DNA from: Astropecten irregularis
Lineage: Eukaryota; Echinodermata; Asteroidea; Paxillosida; Astropectinidae
NCBI GenBank assembly: GCA_963971285.1
Contig: OZ020265.1
Coordinates: 4,194,270-4,258,269 of the forward strand
Direction: 5' to 3'
DNA length: 64,000 bases
Part shown: in pieces, positions 3,939 through 60,834 of the stretch
Position numbering within the stretch: position 1 is the stretch's first letter
Layout: the number at the start of each line of letters is the position of its first letter
Notes under the pieces: generated by a model
Told to the model about the DNA's origin: nothing
Databases searched by the model: none
Seen by the model: the letters and a program-made list of their open reading frames with translations, nothing else
Program-made: the position numbers and the translations under genes

Positions 3939-4149
3939 CTTGACTGCTACTCATATGACCTACATCTAGGACCTACTAAATCTAGCTACACTGTAATAAT
4001 ACGTGTACATGACACCAATTCCAGGTAACAAGAGGGTGCGCATGCGCGGCACTGTTTTATTCAACACAATACACATGACATCTCCCTTTTTCTTTTTTTT
4101 TTAAGAAACAAAGTAAGTAACTTGACACTTTAAAGTTACATGTCAACCA

Positions 4150-5370
4150 AACCGAAGTAAATGTTTTACAAACTGTTGACAACCTTTGTTGACCTGACCA
4201 AGGCCTTTGATACAGTGAGTCGGAAGGAACTCTGGAAGATCATGGAAAAATTACTCTTCGAAGCATGTTCATCCCAATTGTTCACCAGTTCCATGATGGC
4301 ATGATGGCAAGAGCCCTGGACAACGGTGAACCCTCTGAAGCCTTCCCAGTGACTAACAGAGTCAAACAGGGTTGTGTCCTGGCCCTGATATTGTTCAGCA
4401 TGATGCTCTTAGCAATGCTGCCTGATGCTTTTACAGACTGTGAGCCTGGCAACGACATCAGGTACAGGTTGTATGAAAAGTGTACAACCACAGGAGGCTG
4501 CAGGCTATCTATCACAAAGATGAAGGAGACTGTTCTCAGAGACTTTTTCTTCGCTGACGACTGTGCCCTAAACGTCAATGAAGATGAAGAAATGCAAGCA
4601 AACCGAAGTGATGTACCAGCCGGCTGGGGGCAAGCTGTACCTCGAGCCCCAGATAACAGTGAACAGACATTACAGTATGCAGAGACTTTTACCCACCTAG
4701 GTTACTACCTAGGTAGTAATCGCCAACATCTACACTGAGACCAACAACAGAATCTGAAAGGCAAGCAGTGTTTTCGGGAGACTGCGGGAGAAAATCTGGG
4801 ATAGGAGAGGAATCAACCTTAAAACCAAACTAAAAGTATACCAGATGCAGGCTGTGGTTCTCACCACCCTACTCTATGGCTGCACAATTTGGACCAGGTA
4901 TAGAGGGCATGAAAGGAAAATCAACCATTTCCATCTCAGATGTCTTTGAAACCTCCTTCACATCCACTGGCAGGACAAAATACCCGACACAGTATAGTCC
5001 TGAAGCAGGCAGACATCCCCAGCGCTATCACCATTAGGTGCAAGGCTCAGATGAGATGGGCAGGCCGCGTCTCCTGTATGCCAGGTCATTCCTAAGCAGC
5101 TCGTCTGTGGGGAACTCTGCTGTGGCATGCACACAGTCGGAGGGCAGAGAAAACGTTTCAAGGACAGTCTGACTGAGTTCTGGGAGCCCCTCGCCTCTGA
5201 TAGATCCTCCTGGCATCACCTCATCAACAAAGCAGTGCATACAGCAGAGGAACACAGGTCCCGTCAGGTGGAACAGTCTTATTTTGGAGTGTTGCCTTTT
5301 GGGGTTCCTGAGGTCGTTTGTTTGCAACCATTCAACAAAAGTATGAATGCTTAACCATACACTGGCAGTC
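4150..5370 (+). pseudogene. Decayed reverse transcriptase of a second non-LTR retrotransposon
   Basis: A 5'-truncated RT remnant in several frames. It shows LTKAFDTVSRKELWKIM, then FHDGMMARALDNGE, VKQGCVLALILFSMML, FFADDCALN and later THLGYYLGSN, all on the plus strand. Further 3' (about 4820-5230) are degenerate matches to the C-terminus of such elements (HTVGGQRKRFKDSL). The frames change several times. The wording of the motifs is unlike the LINE at 700-3950 and resembles RTE-type or related elements, though the clade is uncertain. It ends near 5370 without a recognised tail. Confidence 0.75.
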
Positions 5371-6358: not shown

Positions 6359-6517
6359 TGTCTATAGCAGTTCACCTCATGGTGGGAGAATATTTATGAT
6401 TGCTTTGCTATTTCCATTGAAATGCATTGGATGGGGGCATTGTCTGGGATAAAGGTTCAATGAACCTTTTGTCCCCCAAAATGGGCTCATTGTGTACATT
6501 ACCCCCTTGATTGGCAT

Positions 6518-6972
6518 TTGAATAGATCTGCATTTGAATAGATCTGTATTTGAATATATTGATCTGCATTGGAATAGATCTTCATTGGAATATATTTGCA
6601 TTTGAATAGATCTGTGCGTGAATAGATCTGCATGTGAATAAATCTGCATATGAATAGATCTGGATGTGAATAGTTCTGCACGTGAATAGATCTGGATGTG
6701 AATAGTTCTGCATGTGAATAAATCTGCATATGAATAGATATGGATGTGAATAGATCTGCATGTGAATAGATCTGCATGTGAATAGATGTGCATGTGAATA
6801 GATCTGCATATTAATAGATCTGCACGTGAAAAGATCTGCATGTGAATAGTTCTGCATATGAATAGATCTGCATGTGAATAGATCTGCATATGAATAGATC
6901 TGCATGTGAATAGATCTGCATGTGAATAGATATGCATATGAATAGATCTGCATGTGAATAGATCTACATGTG
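6518..6972. repeat. 16-bp satellite array, copy 2
   Basis: About 28 units of the same GAATAGATCTGCATGT satellite as at 95-352. The left-hand units are diverged (GAATAGATCTGCATTT) and the right-hand units are more uniform, as expected of an array edge. Confidence 0.95.
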
Positions 6973-8525: not shown

Positions 8526-8529
8526 AAAG

Positions 8530-10110
8530 TGCTACAGAATGCTACCTGTGAATATTACAGCATGTAATATTTGAAGGCTGAAGTGCACAATTGCTACTTA
8601 TGAATTCAGGGTAGGCTCAAGGGTGCTACAGAATGCTACCTGTGAATACCACATGTAATATTTGAAGGCTGAAGTGCACTATTGCTACTTATGAATACAG
8701 CGTAGGCTCAAGAGTGCTACAGAATGCTACCTGTGAATACCACCTGTAATATTTGAAGGCTGAAGTGCACTATTGCTACTTATGAATACAGCGTAGGCTC
8801 AAGAGTGCTACAGAATGCTACCTGTGAATACCGCATGTAATATTTGAAGGCTGAAGTGCACTATTGCTACTTATGAATACAGCGTAGGCTCAAGAGTGCT
8901 ACAGAATGCTACCTGTGAATACCGCATGTAATATTTGAAGGCTGAAGTGCACTAACCAATGCTACTGATGAATACAGCGTAGGCTCAAGAGTGCTACAGA
9001 ATGCTACCTGTGAATACCGCATGTAATATTTGAAGGCTGAAGTGCACTAACCAATGCTACTGATGAATACAGCGTAGGCTCAAGAGTGCTACAGAATGCT
9101 ACCTGTGAATACCGCATGTAATATTTGAAGGCTGAAGTGCACTAGCCAATGCTACTGATGAATACAGCGTAGGCTCAAGAGTGCTACAGAATGCTACCTG
9201 TGAATACCGCATGTAATATTTGAAGGCTGAAGTGCACTAACCAATGCTACTGATGAATACAGCGTAGGCTCAAGAGTGCTACAGAATGCTACCTGTGAAT
9301 ACCGCATGTAATATTTGAAGGCTGAAGTGCACTAACCAATGCTACTGATGAATACAGCGTAGGCTCAAGAGTGCTACAGAATGCTACCTGTGAATACCGC
9401 ATGTAATATTTGAAGGCTGAAGTGCACTAACCAATGCTACTGATGAATACAGCGTAGGCTCAAGAGTGCTACAGAATGCTACCTGTGAATACCGCATGTA
9501 ATATTTGAAGGCTGAAGTGCACTAGCCAATGCTACTGATGAATACAGCGTAGGCTCAAGAGTGCTACAGAATGCTACCTGTGAATACCGCATGTAATATT
9601 TGAAGGCTGAAGTGCACTAGCCAATGCTACTGATGAATACAGCGTAGGCTCAAGAGTGCTACAGAATGCTACCTGTGAATACCGCATGTAATATTTGAAG
9701 GCTGAAGTGCACTAGCCAATGCTACTGATGAATACAGCGTAGGCTCAAGAGTGCTACAGAATGCTACCTGTGAATACCGCATGTAATATTTGAAGGCTGA
9801 AGTGCACTAACCGATGCTTCTTATGAATACAGCGTAGGCTCAAGAGTGCTACAGAATGCTACCTGTGAATACCGCATGTAATATTTGAAGGCTGAAGTGC
9901 ACTAACCAATGCTTCTTATGAATACAGCGTAGGCTCAAGAGTGCTACAGAATGCTACCTGTGAATACCGCATGTAATATTTGAAGGCTGAAGTGCACTAA
10001 CCAATGCTTCTTATGAATACAGCGTAGGCTCAAGAGTGCTACAGAATGATACCTGTGAATACCACATGCAATATTTGAAGGCTGAAGTGCACTATTGCTA
10101 CAGAATGCTG
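8530..10110. repeat. ~95-bp satellite, about 16-17 near-identical units
   Basis: The unit starts GTGCTACAGAATGCTACCTG and includes GCATGTAATATTTGAAGGCT. Spacing is 91 bp in the first units (8625, 8716, 8807, 8898) and 95 bp after about 8898 (8993, 9088 and on), through a 4-bp insertion (ACTAACCAATGC versus ACTATTGC). Later units carry shared variants (ACTAGCC; GCTTCTTATG), which suggests block amplification. It is non-coding and lies downstream of EPS8. Confidence 0.95.
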
Positions 10111-13070: not shown

Positions 13071-16000
13071 CTAAGACAACAAAGAACAGTACCCCTCAGA
13101 ATGCAAATACCATCAACTGCACTTGCTGTATAATCATAGAGCTAGGTCTAGGGTATATTTTGATGTCTATGTACTAAGGCTGAGTTGGAACGGTCGGCAT
13201 GCCGAATTCCGATCGATGCAATCGGATTCCATTTTCGATTGTTCGTTCCGGTGTTCCGATGAAACAATAAAACACATAAGAAATACTTTTTCTTAACTTT
13301 TTGGTACTTCGGAATTTCGGAAGGAATATTTTACAGGGATCTCTCAACTAAATTACAAGCGGTACATTGGTGTAACATACTCGGTACTCCAACTGTGTTT
13401 TTGCACATGTTAAATGTCGGAATTTATTGTGTTTTTCGTTATTTTTGGGGTCACCAAAGTAGGTCATTGTTCGTGAATTAATTTATCGGAACACCGGAAC
13501 AAAAAAAAATCCAAGATGACTCAGCCTTACTATGTACTATTATTATAAGGCTTTACTTGGTTTAATTAAATGTCATTAATGCATTGGTCTTGCTGTTATG
13601 ATATTCAAATCAAATAATCATTGAAAAGTGAGCAAAGAGAAATTGACTTGAGTGGGATTTGAACCATCCACCACCGGATTCATTAAGAGCAGGAGAGCCT
13701 ATCTATCCAGCCCTATGTTGGTGGTGTCCCTAAGAGTCATTTATCTCCAAAGTCAATTATTGAACAAAGATAATTGACCATTAGCGACATCAACAACATT
13801 CATGTAGGACTGGATAGGTCAGTTGGTGGAGTGCCTGTACGGTATTCTTGTTTAAATCCCGCTCCAGTCAATTTTTCTTGGTTCAATTTTAAATGATTTA
13901 AAATTAATCCAGTCAGTTTCCCTTGTGGTTATTTGAGGATTATACATCAAATAATGATACAACGTTACTAAATTCAAAAATTTGCCAATGTTTTTTTTTA
14001 ATGATTGACCCCTAAAATGTCAAACCAGACACCGTGTCAATGGTTGAATGTATTCATGGAATAGTTAGCAAACCCTTGTAAACTTTCACAAAAAACTGTT
14101 AGAAAGGTGCAATGTTAGAGGGAAAGACGGTGCAAATTAAATAAATCCACCAACATACATGTAGGGCTTGATAGCTCAGTTGGTAAGAGTGCTGGTACGG
14201 TATTACAGAGGTTGCTGGTTCGGATCCTGCTCCAGTCAATTTTTCACTTTTCAATGTCATAATTTCAGAGTAATATTCATATTTTGCTTCACAAGTTGTT
14301 ACTTATTCTCACCTCCAGAGCTGCTTTCTGTACCATGAGCTGGCTGTATACACGGTTTGCATCATCAAAACAAACTTGACGCAATTCTTCTTTAGTAAGA
14401 CTGAAGAGCTGTGCTCCAGTCAGAACACCCAGACTGTCCACAGTGCTGTACAATCATGCAATGGAAAGATTGAGGTTAACATTTTATGTGACGAAAACTA
14501 ACAACAACAAAACATCACTCATACAAGCTCACAGTCGTGCTTCATATACTGTCTGTCTGAGGATGATTGTGAATAAAATGGTTCCATTGCAATTGCTTTA
14601 TATCCTTCTGTCCTCTGCAGTGCATTTACAGTGGAAGACCACTAGCGAATACCACTTGGCTACACCAAACTTGACGCTTGGCTCCCAAATTTTGGTGTAC
14701 AATGTATATGCCTGCTGAACAGTGTTCACTATATTGAAAGACCTCTATAACAAATAATCACTGAGCATCCAGCCGTGTTCGTTATAGCAACGTTCCACTG
14801 TACGAAGTTTACACCTTGGGATTATTGGAAGACATCTTCACTCCATTGGTTGATACCAACATAATGAACATACAATGTACACAGCGTTTTGATGAAGGGT
14901 TGATAAGCTGATGCATAAAGCGTAGCAACGCTTTAACCCCCCAAAATCCAAATATCTCCAAATTGTATACTATTGTTTTTACTATAAACAACATATCAGA
15001 TCCCATGTAAAACCTTAAACCCAAGGAATAATATTGATTGAACTATATAAAATGTATGCATTTAACTTTTTTTAAAGAGAAATAATTATATACAAAGTAA
15101 AGTACATGCATGTACACTGATGAAGAGATATTGGATACATCAACATCTTACTACCACAGGATTCAGATGCAATGATCATTACAAAGATCATTAGACTTTC
15201 CCTGTCCATGTCACTTGTACATGTATAACCAAATACAATTTGAAACAAATATGAAGTTCCTACATTTTAGATAGCACATTGATATCAAAAGCCTTTTCAC
15301 ACGATGCTTAAAAAACTTGCAAGGCTTGCAAATTTTTTTCATGCCTGAGAAATCTTACAAAAGTGTCACCATCTGAAAGGACACCAATGCTTGAGAGTGA
15401 CCGACGTCCCTGGTGAATCCTTGAGGAATTTCTCAAGCATGAGAAAAACATGCAAGCCTTTAGAGTTTTTTTTTGCATCATGTCAAAAGGGCTTTAGAAA
15501 TGATAGAGTGACATAATTTAAGTAGATGAACTGTGCTTACAGCTTGCTAAATCCCTTGTTGTGAAGCCACTTAGTAACATCCTCAGCTGATGATAAGTAG
15601 TTGATATTGAAGTTGGTATTGACAGAGCGACGGATATTATAGTTCCTTGGTGGTCCTTGGTTGACTCTCTTCATCAGCTCTTCATGTAGGTCTGTATGGG
15701 TCCTCTCTGCACGTTGTGGGATTAAATCTTCAACTATGTATAGGCCAGTAGTGCCATAGGATAATAGAGTGGTTTGATGACAGGTTGATGTCAGGGAAGG
15801 GGAATATTGATGCATATGAAAGGATTGCAGAGAGTAAAGTAGGAAAGGAGGGAAAAGCATAGCATTGTTAGTGCCTTGTTACCAGTTTAAAGCATTACAT
15901 CAATATCTTTAATGCACATGCACAAACTACTACTACATACTAGAACCCAACATGTATAAAAGGTAGTTCATGACACTGCCCAGTTACCAACTATCATTAC

Positions 16001-19000
16001 ACATAGAACGCATGGTATAGTAAGTAAAGCAGCATAAAAAATAGAGAAGATGGCAACATGTACAAGAACAGTAGCACATATTTCACTACCCAGCAATGCA
16101 AATGCCTATCAAGGTACTGCACTTATCTGTACATATGTAAAGTGGACCAATTTATATAAAACATTGAATTTGTTCCACCATCAAGATTAGTTCATCTTTA
16201 GTACTTAATGGCCTGCAGGTTAAGAAAGATTTGAGGCTTTGCATGGTGACAATTGGTATGTGGATCAGTTTGCAGAAACACCACGTCAGAATCGTTTGTA
16301 CTTTCGGCACTTCTTATTTCGTTGCAATTCTGGCTAGGTCTAAATATTTTGACTAGACTGCTCTAGTTATCATCAGGAGGCTGGCAGGTTACTGAGTCTA
16401 ACAACACTGCATTACGCCTATACCGCATAAAAGATCTATCCACAGTAAATTGAAGGTGTGGAAATATTTCTACCTTAAGATAATCTAAGATCATTTCTCA
16501 TAGAATCAACTGGATCAAACCAGGAACAAGAATAAAGCTACACATTTTGACCAAATTAATGTCAATGATGAAATGTTTGTTGGCTTGTTAGCTTGGATGC
16601 TAATGCAATTGCAGTTTAGTAGTATATTGAGTAAGCTTCATGCTGCAGGAAGCAACGAGTACATCAACCAGTCTGTCAAACCATTTAATGTCTTAAGGAG
16701 TGTAAGGCATGATGCCCACTCCATGATGAAATAAATAGTACGAAACAATAGTAAAATTGACTGACAAACATGAGCTATTCTACAAAGTAAATGTGACAAA
16801 TATTGACTCTTGATTTGTCACTTTGCATTTCAAGAGTAAATTTCCCAGAGTTAATATAAGTCAGCATGGCCCTGTATGATCATACTGGTTCAATGATACA
16901 TAGGCACTAAGAAGCCATAGGGTCTGTTTGTTTCAGGCATGCAATCAGTGATTATGTTGCTCCGGATCCCATTTTAGCATATCCTGCATGGTACATGGAT
17001 TTGCAAAATCACTGATCGTGTGCCTGAAACAAACAGGCCCCTCAACTACCCACACGACTGAATCCCAATCAGAGACATAACCTATAGACGGACAATAGCG
17101 GGTGCCAGAGAGTAATTTCAGGAACGTCGTCACATTAAAAAACCGTGGGAAAAATTGTGTGTCACGCAGTGGCATACATTAACAATGATTTTATGTTCAA
17201 AATCTCGCGAAAGATTCTAAAAGAGGCCAGTTGCGCACGAAATCTCGCGCTAGTTTCCTCTCATAAGTCAAGATTAAATTTCAAACATGAAAGTTTTCAT
17301 TCAATCTTTTCATTATTTGAGAAACATATATTACTGTGCAATGGTAAGTGACATACACTCCGGTGGGTTTAAAATGCATCAATGCCTATTCATCCACAAA
17401 TTCCTGTTTGAATAAATCCTCCCTATTCAATCGTGCATAAAAGTAACAATTTTTGCCCATGGTTTGGGAGTAGTCGGGTGCCGTCATGATTACAGTAGCC
17501 AGATGTCAATTTCCATACACGTTGTGGGTCTATAGGTTATATATGTCTATGATCCCAATCAATCTAGAAGTCTTTCTCATGTCTCATATGATTGAATCTA
17601 CCCATGTAGGCATGCAACTATTCCTCGGATCAGCTGATTTAATTTTTTTTTTTTTCACTTCACTCTTACACCATTGAAAAGTGAAAAATCCTGTACAAAG
17701 TATGACAAAGATTGGAGTTTACTCTCTTTTTGTGAAGTCCAAGTTGCATGTCTGCCTATGGTATGTCTATTGATCCATGTGATTTAGCTTACCATTGACT
17801 CCCTTCCTCTGCAGTTCCTTCTTGCGCAGGGTGTTCTTCAGTTGAGTGGCAAAATCTAGGCTGTTGTGTTCTGCAAGTTTTCATTTCATGATTCATCAAG
17901 AATTAAGACTTGTGAAATCTGACAAAAATTAATGCTATACAAATAGATAACATTTCATCATAAAATAATAATAAAGTGTTAAGATTTTAAAAGGCTATTA
18001 TCCTTTCCTGTGGTGTCCTGCTTTGATTTGAGATCAGTCTTATGCTGATGTGTGATATCAAGTGACACTTATATCTCTTACACTGTACACGCAAGTGTAC
18101 AATCAATCAATTGGGATAAATGCATTGTGCATAGAGGTTGAAGCCATGTAGGAAAAAACAACACCCGGCTACTGCAGAAAACCTTCAACATTCTGCAAGG
18201 ATCACCCCGCAGTGGAGCCAAGGATGAGGCAAGAATCAGGGAGGAGGTGACACCAGCTATCATCCAGCACCTGGGTCAAACATCTCAACCCAGCAAGGCC
18301 TCTAAGCAAGGAAAGTTCATCAACTCTGAACCAAGCATTTGCGTAGAGCAACTTGACGAAGAGAGATGAAGGTTTGTCAAGAGAACTTTAAGTAGTTATG
18401 CAAAAGTGTTGCGGGAATAATTCAATCTGTACTATTGGAATCTCTGCATTCCAGTCATTGATGAAGGATGCAGATGATTGGGTAGAGCAAGACATAAACT
18501 CAACATAGATGCCTCAACATCTTTATTGAATTCTCTAGCTTGACAAAAAGCAAATATAAGACTTCCTTCACAAAACTGATGAAAAGATGAAGTTTTATTG
18601 GCATCTTTCAATAATTTCCAATATCTTTAACATTAAAGCAATCTCCAACTGCTTTATGTGCTTTGATAGTGTTTCTTTTCCAAATGCATCATGATTAATG
18701 AATGCTGGCTACAAGTCAGCAAACACACCAATGCCCCATACAATAAGACCTCAGTGTCCTATTCTTGCCACAACAAGACCGGAAACAAGCAAGAAATCCT
18801 TTGTAGTGTCATCATGGCAGACAAGCTTCTGGAGACTGTGACCAAACACCACCTAAGCAGGCTCTTGTATACAGTTTACTAGTCATCAGCAAGATGGGCA
18901 ACACACATGAAATCCATATCATCTGACAGGGATCAGTTAGATGACAGCAGTATGCATGATTATAAAGGCTTAACTCAAGGGGCCTGCACAGAATATGAAC

Positions 19001-22000
19001 AACCTTAATAGAGAGTGTTGCTGTCAATAAGCACTCCGCACTAATGACGTCACAAAATCCCCGGATGTCAGACAAACATTGACTCAAACACGTAGTGTAC
19101 ATGGACGCGCGCACCTACCACACACGTTTGCATGGTTGCAATGTTTGTCTGAGATCGGGTGCTATTTTTAGCGCAAGTGCGGAGTGCTATTAGATAATCT
19201 TACCTCTTCTTGGGGCCATAGCAGGAACTGGGCCCGGTGGTGGAGGGGGTGGAGGAGGAGCCTGCAAATATAAAGAGAGGGTGTTTTCATATCAGGAAAT
19301 GTCACTCTTTATAGTGTGTTATCTTGCTAATTGAAATGGAAATACAATTTAAACAGAAACAAATACTGGGGAAAATCATAAATACTCTGAAAATTTCATT
19401 TTCACAAGGGCAGGGTAGCAGGGTATTAGTGACTGAATAAAACACAAAATTCATCCATATAAAAGAAAAATACACCCCCCCCCCCAAATAAAGGGACATA
19501 TTTTGACTTCCAAATCAATCATATAGTTTCAACAAGGCAAGAAAATGTCTTAACATTCCAAACAACCGACTGATATCTTAAACTTGGCATTGCCCCATAA
19601 AAATGATGTCAAATTACATATAATCAAAATGTTACAAGATTTGAATTAAGGCTTCATGTACAAACTATAGGTAGGAGCAGGGTGCACTTTCAAATCCAAC
19701 CTAAGCAAACTGCCACTCTGCAGTGTTTGGGCCAATTTCACAGCCTTACTTAGCACAACATTTGCTAACCATGAAATGTTTGTCTTAATAAAAAAAAGAG
19801 GTTTAGCAACTAAACATGCTAAATGTCCATGATGTGTTGTGCATTGCTTCTGATTGTTTTTTGGCTGTTGTTCGCTGACCATGAATATGAAATGGAATTT
19901 TTAATGGTGGTTTGTTTTATTGAAGAAGACATTTTGTGGTAAGCATGTCATGTACGTCAAACCTTATTTCAATGATTATGTACTTTTACATGAATACTGT
20001 TTACAGGGTTAATTATTGTATTGATTACATTACAAGTTACGTCCATCACTCTTCAGGGTTTATTACTGCGGTGTCCACGCCCGCCTTTTCATTGAAAACA
20101 AAAGAATTAACGCCCCGACACACTTTTACTGTGCTGTGGGAGATACACCGCAGGGCCAATTATATGAATCGCTTGTCAGATTCAGATTTAGGGGGCATAA
20201 ATGGCAAGTGCTTTAGGCACTCGCCTCTCACCAATGTGGCCCGAGTTCGATCCCGGCTTGGGTCATATGTGAGTAGAGTTGTGTGTTGGTTCTCTCCTAT
20301 GCTACGAGGGTTTTTCTCCGGGTTCTCCGGTTTTCCTCCCTCCATAAAACCAAGCACTTTCGATCTCAGGCTCCGTAATCATAATGGATTACCGGTATTG
20401 CTGGCAGCCGATCGGCGCCGATGAATACCGGCAATCCGATTACGTTGTAGCCCGCGCTTTGTAACTTTAAGAAAAAAGCGCGCAATAGATGCGTTTATTA
20501 TTATTATGTACAATACAGTTACTGTGGGAATTTGTGGTGGTGAACCTGCGTGTTGAAAGGCATTGTGGCATTTTGTTTGGTTTGGGACAGTAAGTCTACA
20601 GTAACACATCCATACCAATTCAATCAAACTCCAACAGCTGGAGCCTGTTGGAGTTTGTCAAGTTCAGTACCAAACCCGACCAAACCTGTGATCAACTGTT
20701 GAAGTATGTTTGATTCAGTATGCTTCCTAGTACAAGGGCCTGAGGGGTTAGGGTTAAAGGTGTTGCTGCAACGGGCAACAACACAGGTTAGTGGCATTCT
20801 GAAAAACTACGCTATTTTTGAGGAGTTCATTAAACACAACAGCCACAGAGGCAATTCAGCTGCCATGTAAAGATAGAATGTGTGTCAATCTCAAAATTAC
20901 ACATTCTTGTATCAATGAGGAGCATGCTGGGCACCCCTCAATTATGGAGTATATATGTTATACATATTCACCTGCTAGAAATGGGCAAATATTTATGCAC
21001 ACATTATGACTTGAACTGGTAACAAAACTACATTGGCCCTTTAAAGATCATTCAGGATATGAATGCATTACTGCATGTACTCTTAGGGTGGGATACAACC
21101 AGACACTGACAAGGATGAATTGCCATTACAATGTTAATAGTATACAAATATCACATGGTATGAGGGTGGACAGTCCATTTAGCTCCCCGAGGTGCTCCTC
21201 AGCTTTGCCTCGGGAACTACATGTAGTTTGACAACTTCCAACACTGACTGTTCTCCCAAAATAAACCATGTGATATTTGTTTTACAATACCTCATAAATA
21301 TTCTTTATTGTCCACAAATTCATAGAGATTAATATATTTTTATTAGCTTCATGTAGGTAGAAGTTCACCTATGCGCACTTCAAACTTTGCCTAATATGCA
21401 CAATTGCACAGTGAGATGTTCCATGCGCAGGAACAGTTCCGCAGATTCCCCGGCCTTCTCGTTGGTGATCTGCAAATATATCCACTGGCACGTGATGGTG
21501 AATTGACCAATTGGGATTTGGTTCTCGGTCATGAATATTTATGAGGTATAGTGATACAACTCACTCTGAAACACGACACAATACTTCATAAATAGTTGTA
21601 AAAACAAGAATGTCCATTACTGGTGGGATACAATTGGGCTTCCCGTTGGTTGAAGCAACTGCAGAATGTTCATGCATCTGTGCAGTCTTTGTGGTTCTTG
21701 CTTCTTTCAGTTCAGATAAAGGCTTTTTTGTACCTTGAGTGATATTCAAATTCCCTTTTAATTTCTTCTGTTTTCGTTGTTTTTCTCTTTTGTCATATTT
21801 AGCTATGATATACCACCTAGTCCGCTGTTTACATATGAGTGATAAACAGGGAGACAATTCAAGAGGCAAGCAGAAACAAGAAGATGACAAACTGGTTACT
21901 ACGCCATCAACATTCCTTCAATTATCACAGTTAAAGAATTCAGACCTAATCAAACAATTGATCATTCAGAAACATGTGTGACATAATTTAATGTTTCATA

Positions 22001-25000
22001 CTAAACCAAGGACTGTTTATAGCGTAATATTCATAGTCAACACACACTGCATTAATAAATACACTGAGCTTGTATCATTCACATCTTCAAGCAGATTCAG
22101 TGAGACAGTTGGTGATAGAGAAAATGAAGCAGTGTGATAATAATAAAGAGAAGAAAGGTTTGCATCAACACCATGTATAAACTCTTTCATGGATGTATGG
22201 AGTGCTCCTGAGGATGGCCAGAGTACACTTACCAGAGCGTCGAGATCAAACTTCTAAACTTCTCATCGGTTCTTTTCAGAACCACACATCCATAAAAGAG
22301 TTTATACATGGTGTCTCCTCAAACCTTTCTTTTCTTTAGTATGTTACTTCTACCATGGAAAGCTTCAAACCCTACTTTAGTGTAAGATCATTAGAATGAG
22401 ACCTCTTAACGTTCTACCCACCTGCTGCACAGAGCTGTTGCTATTGAAGAACTGATCAAATGAAGTGGAAGCTCCAAGCAATGGAGGTGAGGGTGGTGAC
22501 TGAGGGGAAGGGGCATGATGATTTGAGTTGAAGTTAGGGTTGCGTTGGGGCTGCTGCTGCTGCTGTGGCTGGCTTGGAGTGATAACAGACAGGATGGTGG
22601 AAGGAACATAGCCGTACTGTCCTGAAGAGTTTCGCACTTTCCACCATTTACGATTATCCTCAAGAAGCTGAAAAAACAAACAGTAGTGAATTGCCCCATT
22701 ACCATGCAGTTATGCAATTAACATGTTCATAATACTTCAGGACTGTTATTGTACTTGCATAAAAACCTTAAAATATAGTCCACAAAACTGTGCTTTATAC
22801 TTGCTGTATGTCATGTACATGTACATAAGATAAATCTTTCTTCTTGAGAGGGTATGTATTCAAAGCCAAAAATCTGAGGTTGAAACAATGAGTCGTCTAA
22901 ATGGTGGGCCTTTGAATCATGTTATCTGTGTATATGGAAAGTATACGTGATAAAGGAAGGTAGTGACCTCTGTACAGCTACTTTTGCTGGGGGCTTCTTT
23001 TTCAGCTCAACTTCCAGAAAGTGATATGATCTATACAAATTTCTAAAACAGCGGAATGCCACAATAATGAACATCGCAGGATACTACTGTGGTTGTTCGT
23101 TATAGTGATTTAAAGCACCACATTAGGTATGTATTGTACGCACAAATTGGGCGCCAAGGATGATGTTCAGTATAGCGGTGTTATACTGAAGTAACTAATT
23201 GAGTGAAATTCTGTAGTCTGACCAAGGTTTGCAAGAGAAACCTGCACAGCATGCTGTATAGTGCATTTATCATTGGTTGGCAAAATACCTCAAGTTTTTC
23301 TCCAGACATAATGGTCAACTCTTTAACATTGCGTGCTACAAAGTCAAAGAGAGGCTTGACGAAACCCTTGACCCCTGGTGGTAGTGGAGTAATGACTGAT
23401 GGTTTGGGAGAAACCACAGGTGGATTGTCTTGAGATCTACACACAGAAAGGGACAAACAAACATCACACTGTCAAGTAAAACAGAATCAATGATCTTGCT
23501 CATGAGGAATTCTAACATTTAGCTTTTGAGTACTAATTTTTGAAGCCCCATTTTTTGAGTTAATTTGAAACACATTAATGAGTTATTAAAGGTAATTTCA
23601 TACTGTGGTTTTTGTAAAAGAAATGCAGATTTATGGGTAGAAATATTAAGAAAGATACAGTAACAGTCATATGTGAAATTCTGTCCCATGCAGTGCCCTC
23701 TTTTAAAAAAAAAAAAAGTAAAAAGACACCCACTGTATTTTAAAAATCTTTTCACTGTTATTTTTTATCTTCTGAAGATACAAGTTTGATGCCCTGGATT
23801 CAAAAACATGTGTTACCAAGCTTAATTTCAAGTCATTAACCTTGAAAATCAGCAGATGAAATCATGAAGAAATCAACCATTCCCCAAAATAGTATGGTAG
23901 TGCGATTTTTGTAGGTAGACTTCCTACAAATTACTTCAGGGTTTCAGACTTGATTCAGATTAGTTAGGTACTTGTGATAATTCAATGATGAGATACTGAT
24001 ACCAGATGTTTATCAATTCAGCACCTGCAAAATTAGGTTAAATCAACTTATTTCCAAATTCTACTAAAAAATGCCTCTTCTGCCTTAAAACAAACCCTTA
24101 TTTTGAAATCTCAACTAGCGTATCTAGATAAATACAACATTTCAGGCAGAAAAAATGTTTAACGGTATGTTTCTACCATCACCATCTTTATGCCCTGTAA
24201 GTTATAAGTAAATCTGTGAAGATTTCTGTTTCGCATGCTACCAATGTATGATACTACCTTTAAAGAACAACAATCATAAACTTGCACAATATTAAGGCTC
24301 CAACAACACGTACTTTTGTTTTGATCACAAGGAAAGGAAAAGGCATTTAAGTAGCAACTCATCCAATACACAGGGAAAAATGAAGCACTTGTGCGGCTCA
24401 TTGTGGTGGGAGGCAAGTGTAACTGTCTATGTAGTTTGAGTAAAATATTCATAATCAATTGTGGTACCTGCTGCGACATTGGATTCAATGGGAGACTTTG
24501 GAGAACCAGCGCATGTCAACAGCGCATGTGCACGCAAAACAACGCGCGCATTGCTCACAATTGCGCACGCATTATTTGAGCGTGCGCTGTTGACTCAAGA
24601 CCTGTTCTCCAAAGTCTTCCATTCACCCCGCTGACCCCAGCTAGCTTGGTGGCCTAGTGGTATGGCATCTGCACTAGTAAGCAGGAGGTCATGGGTTACC
24701 TGAGCCAGCACATTAATTTGTTCAAGCACCGAGTATACAGTGCTCATTTACATTGGTGAAGGGCAAGCCTCGTTTGCATATTTCTATCTCCCCTATGAAT
24801 ATTCATACCTTGAGGTACTTGGACGTAGCTGATCAGACACAATGCTGCTGTTGCTGTTGCGCTTATGACCATTGTAAACATTATCTGAATAATCAGATCC
24901 CTGCAGTTATCAAACATATGAGTCAAAAAGAACATTAATCAACGCACAACATTAATAGCGTTCCGCACTTGCACTAAAAATAGCACGGACCTCAGACAAA

Positions 25001-28000
25001 CATTGCAACCATGCACGCGTGCGTGGGGGTGAGCGTGGGTGTACGTACATGTACACTACGTGTGTGAGTCAATGTTTGTCTGACAGCCGGGGATTTTGTG
25101 ACGTCATTAGTGCGGAGCGCTATTAGAATCATCCAGCTACTGAGAGTAGACAAGAAATGAAATATTAATGAAGTCATAATATAACATTATAAATCTTTGA
25201 GAGGATCCTCAAGCCCTGACCAGGTCAGAGTCCAGGCCAGCCAGAAAATCATGTGTGGACGCACCACGCAGGATCAGTTAAATCTTCCATCATCGGGTCA
25301 AATGACCACAGCATACGTCAGTGACTTTTCACTGGCCTAGACATGCTTGTGAAACTGGCATCTATTGTGTGTTGTCAGCTGTACAATGTACATGTACATG
25401 TAATATCAATGCACACAACCAACAGACACTAAAAAATGATAACAATCCATTCTTCTTTGTCACGTCCTGATGTGAAGTATGGCTGATATATTTTTCCAAT
25501 ATTTCGAAATGTTGTTGACCTTAGCAAACAAACTTCAACAAGTAACCAACAAAAGTGAAGAAATAGAGTGCATAAACTTCGAGGCAACTTCTACCAGCTT
25601 GACTAGTTTACCCATTCTAACCACGTCAATAAATCAAAGTGCGGACAGTGGGAAGATTTATCCGCTGGAATATAACCCATCGTCAAAGTAAAGTTACCCT
25701 TAATGTTTATCCAGTGCAAACAGGGCTTTATACACAGCAATAGGTGCAAAGTGCACTCTTATCAGCAGCATGGTGTTTCAAGATTTCAGGAGTTTCTAGT
25801 TGTTTCTAGCTGTGTGATTGTCAGACTCAACGTGTTATTTCATTATACAAAATTTGGATGGAAACTAAAGATGTGAAAGAAATGAGAGACACATGTTCAG
25901 CTCCAGCTTGGAAATAATTGAAGGCTCAGCTAAGTAAGACATCAAGCTACTGACACCATTTGGACTTGGAACAAGCAAATTCAAGAAAGAATTTAGGCTT
26001 TGCATGGTGAAAATTGGTATGTGAGTTGGTTTGCGGAAACACCATGTAAGAATTGTTCGTACTTTCGCACTTCTCATTTCGTTTGCATTTCTCGTAAGGT
26101 ATCAACATTTCGACTAGCTTGCTGTAGTCATCATCAGGAGACTTAAAGCCAATAAGCAAATTGTTTACTCAGACCTGAATAGCTTAAAACCCCCGATACC
26201 ACATTTAGGAAGCTACGTACACTTGGAACACGGTCTCTCACTTCACCACGAGCAACAGCAGCAGCATTAGCAGCAACTGCTGCATTAACATCAAGGTTTG
26301 TATGGTGCTCAGGTAGTACTGGAGGAGTCCATCCATCATGGAAGTATGGTGTGTAACGACTTACTGGTCTCTCTTTAGGCCATTCAGTCCTGTATTATGC
26401 AAAGGAATCAAGGTAAAAGCTACTTGTATTTGTAATTAATATTAGGTGAATGGGAAGCAATCAAACAGTGTGACACTATATCCCTCTTTATATGTATAAC
26501 ACAATCTGCAATCAAGGACAATCACAACAGATAGAGCAATGATCATTTATCTTCTTGTGTGTTTAAAAAATGTATTTAGTTTAAAACATTGAAAAAGAAC
26601 AAAGAAACATTTACTGGAGCAGGGTTCGAACTGGCGACCTCCTGAATAACGTACCTGGCGCTCTTACCAACTGAGCTATCCGGCCCTATGTTGGTGGTGA
26701 ACCCAATAGTTAATTATCTTTGTTCGTTTGACATTCAGAAGCCATGAAACCATGCACCGCCATATCCCAAGATCACTTCATCTATACGCACAGCAATGCT
26801 ACAACCTGGGAACGGTACGTGGGGGATCACTCAAAGAGGATACAGCTTTTTAATTAATATAATCATCTACTATTATCCTCAAAAAGCTTCTGGTTATCAG
26901 CATGATATACCATGATATTTCATAATAAAAAAGGATGTAATTTATGGGGGTATTTAAAGGTAGTATCATACTTTGAGTTTTATCAAAGAAATACAGATTC
27001 ATTGGGAAAAATATCAAGACAGATACAGTAACAGTCATCTGTGAAAATTAAAGTCCCATACTGTGCCGACTTTTTGATGAAACAATGAACAACAGCCACA
27101 ATTTTTCTTAAGTCTTTTCTCTTTTATTTTTTATCTTTTAAAAGATCAAAAAGATTTTCGGTCGTTGTTTTACTAATTTCTGGATAAATACACCAATACA
27201 GGGAGAAACATTTTAACGGTATGTTTCTACCAGCATCTTCATACCCTGTAGGTTATACGTAAATCTGTGAACATTTCTGTTTTGGTCTCTTACCAAAGTA
27301 TGGTACTACCTTTAACATCCACTAAAATCACATGACCCAAAATGACAGACTTACGAAGGCACTGTCCATGGACGTCCCAGAGACTTCCAGAGATCTGCTT
27401 CACGGGAAGTCAGACAGTTAGTCAACAGGTCCACAGCCTGAGGCGTCAGGAGTGGAGAGACAATGTTGGATGCAAGATCAGTCCCCTGACAACTCTTGAT
27501 GATTAACTCTAGTGGCACCATGAGAAAGTGAATCAACTCAGGAGCATTGGGATCATGGATGTGGTTCTTCAGTCTAGCCTGTAATGGATAACATTCACAG
27601 TATTCAATGACAATATCCTCCAGTGCGGGGAATTAATACGGACATTTCACAATAGTACGCAACCATAAGTTTGAAATGTGTTGGCCAATCACAACGCACA
27701 GAATTAATTTTGTCGATAAACTGAGCATGTGGAAAGATTCGCAGTTTGCCGACAAATTGGCCAACGCGTTGCAAACTCATTGTGGGGCACCATTGTGAAT
27801 TGTCCGTATTGAAGGGAATTATTAAAGGCTCATGCTAGGTTTCCACTGTTGTGCGGTCCATTACAAATGCCATGATTGGTCATTCATAGCTGATCGTGGA
27901 ATTTCTCTGCAATTTCAGGTTTGGTTACGAGGTACCCCACAGAGAGTCACAGCAAATCTAGACAGAGATCGCAGCAAATCTAGACAGAGATCGCAGCAAA

Positions 28001-31000
28001 TCTAGACAGAGATCGCAGCAAATCTTAACAGAGATCGCAGCAAATCTTAACAGAGATCGCAGCAAATCTTGACAGAGATCGCAGCAAATCTTGACAGAGA
28101 TCGCAGCAAATCTTGACAGAGATCGAAGCAAATCTAGACAGAGATTGCAGCAAATCTAGACAGAGATCGCAGCAAATCTTAACAGAGATCGCAGCAAATC
28201 TTGACAGAGATCGCAGCAAATCTTAACAGAGATCGCAGCAAATCTTAACAGAGATCGCAGCAAATCTTAACAGAGATCGCAGCAAATCTTAACAGAGATC
28301 GCAGCAAATCTTGACAAAGATCGCAGCAAATCTTAACAGAGATCGCAGCAAATCTTAACAGAGATCGCAGCAAATCTTGACAGAGATCGCAGCAAATCTT
28401 GACAGAGATCACAGCAAATCTTAACAGAGATCGCAGCAAATCTAGACAGAGATCGCAGCAAATCTTAACAGAGATCGCAGCAAATCTTAACAGAGATCGC
28501 AGCAAATCTTAACAGAGATCGCAGCAAATCTTGACAGAGATCGCAGCAAATCTTAACAGAGATCGCAGCAAATCTTGACAGAGATCGCAGCAAATCTTAA
28601 CAGAGATCGCAGCAAATCTTAACAGAGATCGCAGCAAATCTTGACAGAGATCGCAGCAAATCTTGACAGAGATCACAGCAAATCTTAACAGAGATCGCAG
28701 CAAATCTAGACAGAGATCGCAGCAAATCTTAACAGAGATCGCAGCAAATCTTAACAGAGATCGCAGCAAATCTTAACAGAGATCGCAGCAAATCTTGACA
28801 GAGATCGCAGCAAATCTTGACAGAGATCGCAGCAAATCTAGACAGAGATCGTAGCAAATCTTGACAGAGATCGTAGCAAATCTTGACAGAGATCGCAGCA
28901 AATCTTGACAGAGATCGTAGCAAATCTTGACAGAGATTGTAGCAAATCTTAACAGAGATTGTAGCAAATCTTGACAGAGATCGCAGCAAATCTTGACAGA
29001 GAATAGTGATTGTATCACCCGATCACCACCTATTGGAAAGATGATTAGTTGCGATATGGTGTGTTTTGTTACGATCCAATATTATCTGGTGCGATGATCA
29101 CGATTAATGATTAATCGTAATGATCGTACAAAATGTTTGACTGACCTCAAGATCTGATAGGATCACCACAATTACTCCACGATTAAGACCACAATTTCAA
29201 TTAAACCACCAATCATAAAAGTGGGAACACTTGCATAAGGTATTGTTGGATATTAGCATGTTATGACAGAAATGACAAGATTGTTAACGTGATTCAGGAA
29301 CTTTAATAAATCACTGATTTCTGTGCATCAAACTCCAAATTTGATCAACGGATACAAAGAATTCTAAAGAACAGGAATACTGTACCAGCAAATTGAAGCA
29401 GAATTTGAATTTCTTGAAGCACTCGATGTACTCTGATTCAGGCGGAGGATGTGAGCGAGCTAAGAGAAGGCCATCACCAGGTTCACGTTTCTTGCTCTTG
29501 CGTGCTTTACGACGTCGGAGAAGCTCAGTGTAGGCCTCTGCAGCCTTCTGCAACAGGCCAATGAAGGCCTCTATCTCATCAAAACAGTGGTTCAGAATTT
29601 CCTGTAAGGAAACAAATATAGGTTAGGCCATAAACAAAAAATTGTTGTATTGGCGTAACCCGCCCGACCCAAAAATATGCCCCGACCGTAAGCATTTTAA
29701 ACCAAAAGAAATCAAAATAAAATAAATAAATAAATAAAAATCGGGGGAAAAAAATTAAAAAAAGAAAATCGCAAATTTCTATGCAGATTAAAAGCTTAAA
29801 AGGAGCAAAAGATGGAAACCAGACTGGTTAAAGTTGTTATGTCATTCCTTGTCTTTATTTGACACGTCAAATACTGTGATATACAGGGGAAAAGCATTTA
29901 ATACCCCAGGACAAATTTTAAAAAAATAAATAAAATCCGCCCGCCCTACCCTATTTTCCAAACCTCCGTTACGCCAATACAACAATTTTTTTTTTATGGC
30001 CTTACTTGAATCTGGCTAACATCTGAAGTTAATATTTCATAGTGAGCTATTTGGAATTTTCAGCTGAGAACAAGTAAGGACAAGATATGATTCTTGTCTT
30101 TTGGCACCTTGTATGTTAACCTATACATAGACCACTGACTTGTCTTATATCTGTTCTGGCAAAAATGGATGGAATTAGGCTAAGTTAAGTTCAGTTGAAA
30201 AAGTGACTTCAGTAAAATTGATCAGGCATTAATCAATACACTAGGTGCTAATGACCACTTACTAAAAGAGAATGAATACCAATGACCACTAACTGCACAG
30301 CAAGTATGTATGCAGAGGTTAGGATCAACAACCCGTCTTAGTTATTTCCCAGTAGGGTTAACACTTTGACTAGGCACCGAAGAATGGCAAGAGAGCAGTC
30401 ACACTATGTAAGTGTACAAAATGTTTCCTCATATCATTCAATCGTTGCTGCCATTGACGTATTGTATACAAGGAGAGTGACAATGGAAACAATCGTATAT
30501 AGGTCTAAAACCAGAGTGAATCAGTATCAATGTCAGCAATTAGAGTTATCACATTCCGGCTGTCACAACCTGTCTAGGGACAAGCATTGCCTTTCCTTTC
30601 GCCCCTGTACTTCAATTAGCACACATTTGTACATCCAAGGACTGAGAACAACTTTGAACAAACAAGGCCGTTCAAGAATGATTTCATCGTTATTCCTTTA
30701 TCCTCTTGCACCCTGTGTCTTAATACAGTATGAACATGGACTTCTGCAGGAGGGATAGCAGAAGACAGGTTACATCTCTTACAGGTCAGTTGCATTCACA
30801 CACCATTCCACAGCAACATGGCGCTGGTTAAGTATAAGGTTTCACTACTCAGTCGAAAGGAAGCCAAGTTAACATCACAGATTTGTGCAGCTAACTTTTG
30901 AACTTAACAGTGAAGTTAGCAGCAAAGTCAGCTACTCAGTTGAACCCTAGTCCTGTCATGTTCAGTTTATTTCTATCCACCTCAATGAAGACTTGAAATG

Positions 31001-45826: not shown

Positions 45827-45924
45827 TTAGTGCCATGTACAAACAGGTGCCACAGCATGCACATGTTATCTAGACATTTAAACTTGGCAGCATGGCTCTC
45901 ATAAGTATAATTACATAAAATGAA

Positions 45925-46045
45925 GGTAAGTTTGCGGTGACACCATGTAATCTCTTCTGTGAGAGTGTGTGGTTCTGAGAAGAACCGTAGGTATTAACTC
46001 GACGTTCCGAACAGTGTGCTCTGTTCGTCCTCAGGAGAATGACAA
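45925..46045 (-). mobile_element. Dispersed repeat with hammerhead-like motif, copy C
   Basis: Minus strand: CTCCTGAGGA, stem CGAACAG/CTGTTCG, GAACGTCGAG, then hairpin GGTTCTTCTCAGAACC and TTACATGGTGTCACCGCAAA. It has the best stem II of the four copies. Confidence 0.75.
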
Positions 46046-46370
46046 TGTTCACAATTGATTTTCCAGCTGAATTTAACACACCCAGAGTCACTGCCTTTTA
46101 CTTTTATTTGTTCTTGTTATTTTCATCATTAGTATTATGTGTTGGGCGATTCCATGGTCAGCCACATTACACAGTTTGTATTTGTTCAATTCTATAACTT
46201 GGTGGTATACGTTTTACAAGGATGAGTCTTTCTGTCAAGTTTATACACTGATTTCAACTTGACACTCAAAGCTTTAAGTAGTAATGCTATTGGAAATGTT
46301 GCAGGCTTTGTAGAGTGAACGGTCAGTTGCATTACAGTACGCTTGGAATTGCCTTTTTCCATCTTCTTAA

Positions 46371-46706
46371 AGGTAGTATCATACTTTGGTTTTTGTCAAA
46401 GAAATACAGATTCGTGGGCAAAGGTATCAAGGGAGATACAGTAAAAGTAATCTGTGAAAATTTCAGTCCCACACGTTGCCCACTTTTTTGAGAAAACAGC
46501 GAAAAACGGCCACAGTTTTTCTTAAGTGTTTTCTCTTTTATTTTTGATCTTTTGGTCGTTGTTTTACTAATTTCTGGATAAATACACCATTTCAGGCGGA
46601 AACATTTCAACAGTATGTTTCTACCAGCATCATCTTCATACCCAGTTATACGTAAATCTATGAACATTTCTGTTTTGGTCTCTTACCAAAGTATGATATA
46701 CTACCT
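46371..46706. mobile_element. MITE with TTAA flanks, copy 3
   Basis: TTAA, AGGTAGTATCATACTTTGG ... CCAAAGTATGATATACTACCT, TTAA; 336 bp. Closely matches copy 2 over its whole length. Confidence 0.9.
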
Positions 46707-59929: not shown

Positions 59930-60232
59930 AGGTAGTATCAATACTTTGGTAGCATACCGAAACAGAACTTTTCACAGATTTACCTATAAGTAACAGGGTA
60001 TAAAGATGGTGATGGTACAGAAACATATATTGTACCTTTAACATTTTAAACGAATGACCAACATTATTTGCTGAAAAGATTTTTTTTTAAATACTGTGGC
60101 CGTTTTTTACTGTTTTTCTAAAAAAAAAAAAAGAGCACTATATGGGACTGAAAATTTCACAGATGACTGTTAGTGTATCTTCCTTGATATTTTTGTCCAT
60201 AAATCTGTATTTCTTCAACAAAAACCAAAGTA
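59930..60232. mobile_element. MITE with TTAA flank, copy 4 (one end truncated)
   Basis: TTAA then AGGTAGTATCAATACTTTGG; the interior is inverted relative to copies 2-3 and ends in ACCAAAGTAAATAC without the final CTACCTTTAA. Confidence 0.8.
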
Positions 60233-60834
60233 AATACGTAGGATTTGAAGCTTTGCAGGGTGGAAGTCTTGTAATAAGGACAGATTTGTGGAGACACCAA
60301 AGTAAATACTTTTAACAAAGCAAAAACAACAAAGTCTCTCACAGAATGCACCAGGATTCCTTGCTCTCTTTTGGGAACTATGACTTATGATTCAGAGTGA
60401 ATTGCCAAACCACTGCTACATTATATTAAAACTACTATTAGACCTGTGTTTGTAGTTAACAAACACTGAGCTGTTTCGCGTATGTTTTACAAAATACATA
60501 TAATATATATAAAATTTACCCAGGACAGAGAAATAGTTTATCAGCGGTGTCTTAATTGTCCTAAACAACTACCAGGAGCGTCGTCACTCATCCATCAATA
60601 CACATATACAGATAGGCCTAGATGTATACACACGGCCATGAGAAACACAGAAATGGCAAAGTGTACTATAGGCCAGTGCGCATAGTATGTATGGTTGTGC
60701 TTATGGGCGGCGAAAAATACGTTTATGTGTATACAATTGGCCCACTACTATGGATAGCCATATCAGCGGTCCAAAAAGTTCCAAAGCCCGTGTTTTGTGT
60801 TATGTATGTTTGACTCTAAATGGCTAAATTAATT

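What the first reader, a model, noticed from the sequence alone, without database searches (positions are those of the whole stretch)
45990..46038. Covariation of stem II among four copies of the hammerhead-like repeat
Copies at 16338-16379, 26099-26140, 45990-46038 (all minus) and 22204-22246 (plus) share CTCCTGAKGA and a following stem, yet the stem differs: ACTAGA/TCTAGT, GACTA/TAGTC, CGAACAG/CTGTTCG, TGG/CCA. Changes keep pairing. That is what RNA-level selection would leave. The copies also share a 3' part, ACATGGTGTYWCC, so they are one superfamily.
Basis: partly seen in the sequence, partly recalled or inferred. Interest (0 to 1): 0.8.

Follow-up and report, generated by a model that had tools for sequence, protein, structure and literature searches.

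The report
Decayed hammerhead repeats, likely Penelope-derived
Four short repeats in what looks like animal DNA each start with a hammerhead-ribozyme-like RNA motif whose stem keeps pairing although its letters change; they look like old short copies of Penelope-type jumping genes, a kind already known to carry such ribozymes, and two of them also hold a hairpin like the one at the end of histone messages.

Summary
Exactly four copies of the CTCCTGAKGA motif with a following stem exist in the window. In one common register (7 bp, 6-nt loop) 24 of 28 cells pair and four of seven pairs show changes on both sides. When every possible hairpin competes, 83 (pairing) and 100 (double changes) of 5000 column shuffles do as well. 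Support is therefore suggestive, about 2%, rests heavily on copy c46, and comes from about three lineages, because c16 and c26 are one subfamily.

The four are repeats of about 160 bp that begin at CTCCTGA and share a 3' tail with a fifth, tail-only copy at 60235-60313. One has a head-to-head inverted partial copy. The motif fits the minimal hammerheads (CUGANGA, stem II, GAAA, no real helix III) published for Penelope-like elements. No reverse transcriptase or GIY-YIG domain was found beside the three copies scanned. Only c26 keeps the listed core letters; the copies look mostly dead.

Least expected: c22 and c46 carry a histone-type hairpin (RF00032, 31.4 and 34.5 bits) plus a downstream RAAGAG box.

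The parts
45871..46037 (-). copy c46 (subfamily A): element from CTCCTGAGGA to about the end of the shared tail
   Evidence: nhmmer with models built from the copies, element hit 46037-45904 and tail hit 45958-45876, envelope to 45871
45992..46037 (-). c46 minimal hammerhead-like motif: CTC CTGAGGA C GAACAG agcaca CTGTTC GGAA CGTC GAG; stem II 46027-46021 with 46014-46008, 7 of 7 paired; position 13 is G in place of A
45971..45986 (-). c46 histone-type hairpin GGTTCT TCTC AGAACC followed by ACACA; GAAGAG box at 45957-45952
   Evidence: RF00032 34.5 bits, above gathering 34; spacing
22205..22376 (+). copy c22 (subfamily A), direct copy
   Evidence: nhmmer element hit 22205-22351, tail hit 22294-22376
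22205..22250 (+). c22 hammerhead-like motif, stem II 22215-22221 with 22228-22234, 5 of 7 paired; AGAG in place of GAAA
22268..22283 (+). c22 histone-type hairpin GGTTCT TTTC AGAACC followed by ACACA; AAAGAG box at 22295-22300
   Evidence: RF00032 31.4 bits, below gathering 34; spacing
22140..22200 (-). inverted partial copy of the 3' part, head to head with c22; further inverted-repeat arms 22116-22129 with 22325-22338
   Evidence: 61-nt inverted repeat, 85% complementary; nhmmer
25983..26140 (-). copy c26 (subfamily B), between EPS8-type coding stretches, sense to them; possible target duplication AATTTGCTT, 13 nt before the element start
26095..26140 (-). c26 hammerhead-like motif with the listed core letters intact: CTC CTGATGA T GACTAC agcaag CTAGTC GAAA TGTT GAT; stem II 26130-26124 with 26117-26111, 6 of 7 paired
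26000..26049 (-). c26 tail hairpin: arms 26040-26049 and 26000-26009 around a 30-nt loop rich in A and C, read by eye
   Evidence: 10-nt arms, 90% complementary; 7 of 8 positions paired in each of c26, c16 and c22, the three copies tried
16222..16379 (-). copy c16 (subfamily B); possible target duplication TAACCTGC, 4 nt before the element start
16334..16379 (-). c16 hammerhead-like motif, stem II 16369-16363 with 16356-16350, 6 of 7 paired; G12 is A
60235..60313 (-). c60, tail-only copy without the hammerhead; possible target duplication GTATTTACT, longer by eye
   Evidence: nhmmer tail model, 3.7e-18, c60 being one of the five that built it; independent BLAST hit from c22, 3.87e-07

Best explanation
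These are old, short (about 160 bp) retrotransposed copies of the start of a Penelope-like element (pseudo-LTR, hammerhead and 'tail'), in at least two subfamilies. The copied RNA began at CTCCTGA, folded a minimal hammerhead (stem I of about 3 bp, stem II of 7 bp, essentially no helix III), and ended in a tail hairpin, where reverse transcription is inferred to have started. While the element was active its RNA had to fold, so stem II changed by paired substitutions; since insertion the copies have decayed. A hammerhead this small would be expected to cut slowly alone, and better as a dimer or with protein help. Shown here: homology, boundaries, pairing, decay. Inferred: Penelope-type machinery, past self-cleavage, where reverse transcription began.
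For: Core letters CUGAKGA in 4 of 4 and GAAA in 1 of 4; 24 of 28 stem II cells paired, four pairs with double changes. c16/c26 and c22/c46 each lose similarity at CTCCTGA (c16/c26 three bases before it); no similarity upstream was found. A common 3' tail in 5 copies, one 5'-shortened. Head-to-head inverted partial copy in c22, the arrangement described for Penelope elements in PMC3846280 (passages seen: direct pLTRs plus an inverted, shorter pLTR, palindromic junctions, target duplications of 8-10 bp in some copies and none in others, an optional 31-bp tail). Possible target duplications of 8-9 bp beside c16, c26 and c60 (random pairs as good: 171, 152 and 199 of 4000). PMC11167929 (main text read): the Anolis Penelope-like hammerhead spans the ORF start and reverse transcription starts in an AC-rich stem loop 111-118 bp into the ORF; here the copies end 146 to 160 nt after the start of stem II. 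PMC7761336 and PMC6155905 (passages seen): many animal genomes hold thousands of dispersed minimal type I hammerheads that usually lack helix III, some in Penelope pLTRs.
Against: No reverse transcriptase or GIY-YIG domain was found near three of the copies (three minus-strand frames, 3 kb each, c16, c26, c46), so the link to Penelope rests on architecture and literature. Rfam calls no hammerhead in the window even at E up to 10. The 5' ends lie 37 nt before the expected cleavage point, so ribozyme cutting did not define the 5' end of these copies. c46 and c22 show no target duplication (1668 and 1607 of 4000 random pairs as good). The collections searched gave no animal relative of the repeat.
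Confidence: 0.72

Rival explanations
1. A SINE-like or LINE-mobilised short element with a 5' hairpin that resembles a hammerhead only superficially; the stem is an ordinary structural hairpin.
For: No Penelope gene in the regions scanned; discrete ~160-bp elements with common ends; a LINE-like reverse transcriptase domain is in the window; three of four copies lack the GAAA core.
Against: CUGANGA, stem, GAAA and the UH cleavage letters fall in the right order and spacing; with one extra base after A9 the same arrangement occurs in 12 viral contigs, several of which by eye also show matching stems I and III. The head-to-head inverted copy and tail are Penelope traits (PMC3846280, passages).
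Confidence: 0.13
2. A non-LTR retrozyme (classical type I hammerhead in tandem repeats, spread as small circular RNA).
For: Size range (150-450 bp) and low GC fit the animal retrozymes described in PMC7229834 (passages seen).
Against: No tandem copies in the window, no stable helix III, about 3-bp stem I without a loop; copies start before the motif and not at the cleavage site.
Confidence: 0.06
3. A DNA transposon or MITE: the pairing comes from terminal inverted repeats.
For: c22 has a 61-nt inverted repeat.
Against: The repeat arms are an inverted copy of the shared tail, stem II lies between them, and in the stretches searched c46 has no inverted repeat of 9 nt or more while c16 and c26 have only ones of 10-13 nt.
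Confidence: 0.05
4. Stem II pairing in these four is chance; the homology is real, the structure is not selected.
For: About 2% of column shuffles do as well; without c46 the signal is lost (511/3000 and 3000/3000).
Against: Slid registers fall to 5-14 of 28 cells paired against 24; the stem sits at the hammerhead position.
Confidence: 0.04

Closest known systems
Minimal type I hammerhead ribozymes of Penelope-like elements (Cervera and De la Pena 2014; Lunse et al. 2017: known here only from citations and reviews, neither paper is held)
   Same: CUGANGA core, stem II, GAAA, hardly any helix III, dispersed copies in non-coding animal DNA
   Different: One extra base between A9 and the stem II core (whether published Penelope hammerheads have it was not checked); two copies carry a histone-type hairpin 3' of the motif, which my searches did not find described with it
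Poseidon of Anolis carolinensis (PAc, PMC11167929)
   Same: Hammerhead near the ORF start and, downstream, a stem loop near the 3' end of insertions; cleavage not needed for insertion in vitro there, and here the 5' ends are not at the cleavage site
   Different: No ORF seen here; copies end 146 to 160 nt after the start of stem II against 111-118 bp into the ORF in PAc
Penelope elements of Adineta vaga (PMC3846280)
   Same: Head-to-head inverted, shortened pLTR; short tail; small target duplications
   Different: No ORF-containing copy here; hammerheads are not mentioned in that paper (0 occurrences in the main text)
Histone 3' UTR stem-loop, Rfam RF00032
   Same: 6-bp stem, 4-nt loop, purine-rich stretch downstream; 34.5 and 31.4 bits
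   Different: One pair is U-A in place of the consensus C-G; 3' flank ACACA; sits in a repeat, and no histone gene was looked for

Membership tests
Hammerhead ribozyme | CUGANGA (C3-A9) | tested here: met
   4 of 4 copies; the motif was also how the copies were first picked
Hammerhead ribozyme | G12 A13 A14 and the A15.1-U16.1 pair | tested here: inconclusive
   1 of 4 (c26); c46 GGAA, c22 AGAG, c16 AAAA: decayed
Hammerhead ribozyme | Stem II of complementary sequence that covaries | tested here: met
   24 of 28 cells, four pairs with double change; covariation only at about the 2% level and lost without c46
Hammerhead ribozyme | Stem I | tested here: inconclusive
   first three pairs: c46 3, c22 3, c26 2, c16 2 with a mismatch at the first
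Hammerhead ribozyme | Rfam hammerhead model match | tested here: not met
   no hammerhead family at gathering or at E up to 10; 0 of 7 viral contigs with a motif of this kind were called at that site either (gathering), so the extra base may defeat the models
Hammerhead ribozyme | Self-cleavage after position 17 | not testable with these tools
   needs a bench assay
Penelope-like element | Reverse transcriptase plus GIY-YIG ORF | tested here: not met
   none in 3-kb minus-strand stretches around c16, c26, c46; c22 and c60 not scanned. The copies are filed as derived fragments, not as an element
Penelope-like element | Minimal hammerhead in the pLTR | tested here: inconclusive
   motif present in 4 of 5 copies; that the stretch is a pLTR is inferred
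Penelope-like element | Head-to-head inverted pLTR | tested here: met
   1 of 5 copies, c22; not seen beside c16, c26, c46 in the stretches searched; c60 not searched
Penelope-like element | Common 3' end (tail) with shortened 5' ends | tested here: met
   5 copies share the tail, one is tail-only
Non-LTR retrozyme | Tandem repeats with canonical type I hammerhead | tested here: not met
   no tandem copies in the window
Histone 3' end signal | RF00032 at gathering score | tested here: inconclusive
   c46 34.5 (met, cutoff 34), c22 31.4 (below)

The most novel reading that the evidence does not exclude
One subfamily of a Penelope-like element carries a working histone-type 3'-end signal (SLBP hairpin, ACACA, U7-complementary RAAGAG box) just downstream of its hammerhead, so that two RNA-processing devices, self-cleavage and replication-coupled histone-type 3' end formation, sit side by side in one mobile-element RNA and could tie its expression to S phase.
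Probability: 0.2. Interest if true: 0.72.

Novelty: new member of a known kind. Interest (0 to 1): 0.38.

Why it matters
It shows that compensatory change in a decayed hammerhead stem can be glimpsed in a single 64-kb window, and places the repeats in a kind (Penelope minimal hammerheads) whose role is described as still a mystery (PMC7761336, passages). The histone-type hairpin in the same short RNA is the part worth following: if real it would link a retroelement's RNA processing to the histone mRNA pathway, and it is directly testable.

Tried and rejected
Looking for relatives elsewhere. The exact histone-like hairpin and CTCCTGAKGA-gap-GAAACGTCGAG gave 0 viral contigs. The same gapped pattern in bacterial and archaeal genomes gave 3 places without a convincing stem II when read by eye; treated as chance. 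A looser pattern written with an extra A or T after A9 gave 12 viral contigs, several with plausible full hammerheads by eye; by eye they are not homologues of these repeats. My model R1 does not separate the two groups well: the 3 chance places score 15.3-17.5 bits, and it lists 9 of the 12 viral motifs at 13.9-26.6 bits with E up to 1. A hit of a mechanical motif search at 53830(-) shows none of the rest of the repeat by eye and was dropped.

Target duplications: weak one by one. In the strict test 171, 152 and 199 of 4000 random pairs did as well for c16, c26, c60, and 1668 and 1607 of 4000 for c46 and c22. An earlier, looser test gave 172, 94 and 109 of 2000 for c16, c26, c60, and 1547, 1536 and 1541 of 2000 for c46, c22 alone and c22 with its inverted arm. 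The boundaries of c60 and c46 were reset by eye between the two tests, so I count this as supportive only.

Histone-type 3' cleavage as the maker of the template RNA: rejected for c22 and c46, the two copies with the hairpin, since both run some 90 nt or more past it.

Hammerhead cleavage as the maker of the 5' end: rejected for these copies, since 4 of 4 include the core upstream of the cleavage point.

Papers not held: PMC4209133, PMC5785218, PMC5850863; their content is known here only from reviews.

Full report
What was checked. I take the window as animal DNA: EPS8-type matches lie on the minus strand (EPS8_2nd 89 bits and SAM_3 22.8 bits, both above the curated cut-off; SH3_2 21.7 and SH3_1 21.0 bits, both just below it). 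No genome is held for it. I name them c16 (16222-16379 -), c26 (25983-26140 -), c46 (45871-46037 -) and c22 (22205-22376 +). A covariance model made from their first 46 nt scores them at 57.0-61.0 bits and nothing else above 12.1 bits, so the set is complete for the window.

The stem. In one ungapped register the arms are positions 11-17 and 24-30 with a 6-nt loop: c16 TAACTAG/CTAGTCA, c26 TGACTAC/CTAGTCG, c46 CGAACAG/CTGTTCG, c22 TGGCCAG/CTTACCA; 6, 6, 7 and 5 of 7 pair, 24 of 28 in all. Four of the seven pairs have a change on both sides; 1 of 500 within-pair shuffles reaches the pairing, 1 of 500 the covariation score, 8 of 500 the number of double-changed pairs and 53 of 500 the number of further pair types. 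Sliding the 3' arm by up to 4 columns gives 5-14 of 28. A harder null, shuffling columns and taking the best of all 7-bp hairpins, is reached in 83 of 5000 (pairing) and 100 of 5000 (double changes). Leave-one-out shows how thin this is: 137, 99, 511 and 21 of 3000 for pairing and 76, 40, 3000 and 211 of 3000 for double changes without c16, c26, c46 and c22 in turn; without c16 and c26 together 492 and 192 of 3000, without c16 and c22 together 60 and 1381 of 3000. c16 and c26 are 132 of 157 identical, so they count as one lineage. The claim 'changes keep pairing' is right; 'significant covariation' is suggestive only.

Hammerhead or not. The order CTC-CUGAKGA-(one base)-stem II-GAAA-(C/U)GU(C/U)-GAG is that of a minimal type I hammerhead with about three stem I pairs and no real helix III (core numbering is recalled). 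CUGAKGA is intact in 4 of 4, which is also how they were picked; GAAA in 1 of 4 (c26); c46 has GGAA, c22 AGAG, c16 AAAA. Rfam calls no hammerhead, even at E up to 10. There is one extra base between A9 and the stem core. A pattern search that demanded such an extra A or T returned 12 viral contigs, several of which by eye also have matching stems I and III; 7 of the 12 were scanned with Rfam at gathering and none was called at that site, though one (L006) has a type II hammerhead called elsewhere, at 4638-4729. So the extra base may be compatible with a hammerhead and may explain the Rfam miss.

The element. Similarity between c16 and c26 and between c22 and c46 begins at CTCCTGA (c16/c26 three bases before it), with no similarity found upstream. 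All four share a 3' tail with a fifth copy, c60 (60235-60313 -), which lacks the hammerhead. Stretches of 8-9 bp repeat at the two sides of c16, c26 and c60 (171, 152 and 199 of 4000 random pairs as good), none at c46 and c22 (1668 and 1607 of 4000); 4 and 13 nt stand between that stretch and CTCCTGA in c16 and c26. c22 is preceded head to head by an inverted copy of its own 3' part (22140-22200 with 22282-22342, 61 nt, 85% complementary). The tail can form a hairpin ACATGGTG/CACCATG around a loop that in c26 is rich in A and C by eye (7 of 8 positions pair in each of c26, c16 and c22, the three tried); the c22 loop is not AC-rich by eye.

What it most likely is. PMC11167929 (main text read) describes a Penelope-like element whose hammerhead spans the ORF start, whose reverse transcription begins in an AC-rich stem loop 111-118 bp into the ORF, and whose insertions end there. 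PMC3846280 (passages) describes the typical Penelope insert with an extra inverted, shorter pLTR head to head and an optional short tail. PMC7761336 and PMC6155905 (passages) state that animal genomes hold thousands of dispersed minimal hammerheads that usually lack helix III and that Penelope elements carry them. The repeats here fit that picture: a hammerhead at the start, 3' ends 146 nt (c16, c26) to 160 nt (c22) after the start of stem II, an inverted head-to-head arm. Missing: any RT or GIY-YIG domain (c16, c26 and c46 only, minus strand only). The 5' ends are 37 nt upstream of the cleavage point, so cutting did not shape these copies; in PMC11167929 cleavage is likewise not needed for insertion in vitro.

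Age and selection. The two arms of c22, if made in one event, were identical and now differ at 9 of 61 sites, while c22 and c46 differ at 53 of 158. Part of the divergence therefore likely predates insertion, when the element was active and its RNA fold could be selected. The broken cores say that three of the four copies are not maintained as ribozymes. By position c16 and c26 appear to lie between EPS8-type coding stretches, sense to them; c22 lies near the SH3 stretch in antisense; exons were not mapped, and no effect on the gene is claimed.

The histone-type hairpin. c46 and c22 carry GGTTCT-TYTC-AGAACC-ACACA. Rfam RF00032 scores 34.5 bits in c46 (gathering 34; E 3e-06 over 64 kb and all families) and 31.4 in c22 (below gathering; E 4.6e-05). 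With up to 3 mismatches the hairpin pattern occurs twice in the window against 0.01 expected. Of 50 perfect 6-bp/4-nt hairpin places in the window, read on both strands, only these two are histone-like. RAAGAG, complementary to the U7 core CUCUUU (recalled), lies 11 and 13 nt after the stem; only 0.7-0.9% of 20-nt stretches hold it. c16 and c26 lack the hairpin. Against function: both copies are of one subfamily, so this is one ancestral observation; the hairpin with its flank is 20 of 21 identical (counted by eye) in a pair that is 105 of 158 identical, which is only mildly special; and the copies run on past the hairpin, so their template was not cut there. Full-text searches for hammerhead with histone stem-loop and retrotransposon and histone stem-loop with transposable element gave none; at least three of Penelope-like, hammerhead, short insertions, pseudo-LTR and histone gave 7 papers, stem-loop binding protein with retrotransposon and histone mRNA 11, of which 10 were listed, and RF00032 with transposable 1; of these I saw titles and abstract starts in the listings, none on this subject, and passages of PMC11167929 and PMC7761336. 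Only openly licensed papers were searched, and Repbase was not available.

Verdict. A real repeat family with a plausible RNA fold, most likely Penelope-derived minimal hammerheads, already known in kind; covariation plausible but not proven by four copies; the histone-like signal is the one feature that might be new.

Noticed in passing
22268-22300 (+) and 45986-45952 (-): Histone-type 3' end signal (RF00032 hairpin, ACACA, RAAGAG box) inside two copies of the repeat.
   Followed up: partly
L004 76-109, L005 12754-12781, L006 5793-5824, L007 52-78, L008 2954-2987, L009 1273-1306, L010 174-207, L011 891-921, L012 511-544, L013 6730-6762, L014 1011-1042, L015 3208-3241: Twelve viral contigs with hammerhead-like motifs that have an extra U after A9, several with matching stems I and III by eye; Rfam called none at that site in the 7 contigs scanned.
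   Followed up: partly
707-3950 (-): LINE-like element with a reverse transcriptase domain (PF00078, 6.1e-36) and a 2A-like motif GDIELNPGP near the start of its upstream reading frame (the 2A name is recalled).
   Followed up: no
15000-27700 (-): EPS8-like gene: EPS8_2nd, SH3 and SAM_3 matches on the minus strand.
   Followed up: no
46367-46498 (-), 26954-27084 (-), 23583-23713 (-), 60125-60232 (+): Another dispersed repeat of about 130 bp near several of the copies; c60 ends beside one of them.
   Followed up: no
98-347 and 6514-6972: The same 16-bp unit (TGAATAGATCTGCATG, GCATGTGAATAGATCT) in two separate tandem arrays.
   Followed up: no
8528-10094 and 27939-29002: Tandem arrays of a 95-bp unit (16.6 copies, 97% matches) and a 22-bp unit (48.3 copies, 95% matches).
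   Followed up: no
14165-14238 (+): tRNA-like match (Rfam 38.2 bits) that ARAGORN does not call; perhaps a SINE head.
   Followed up: no
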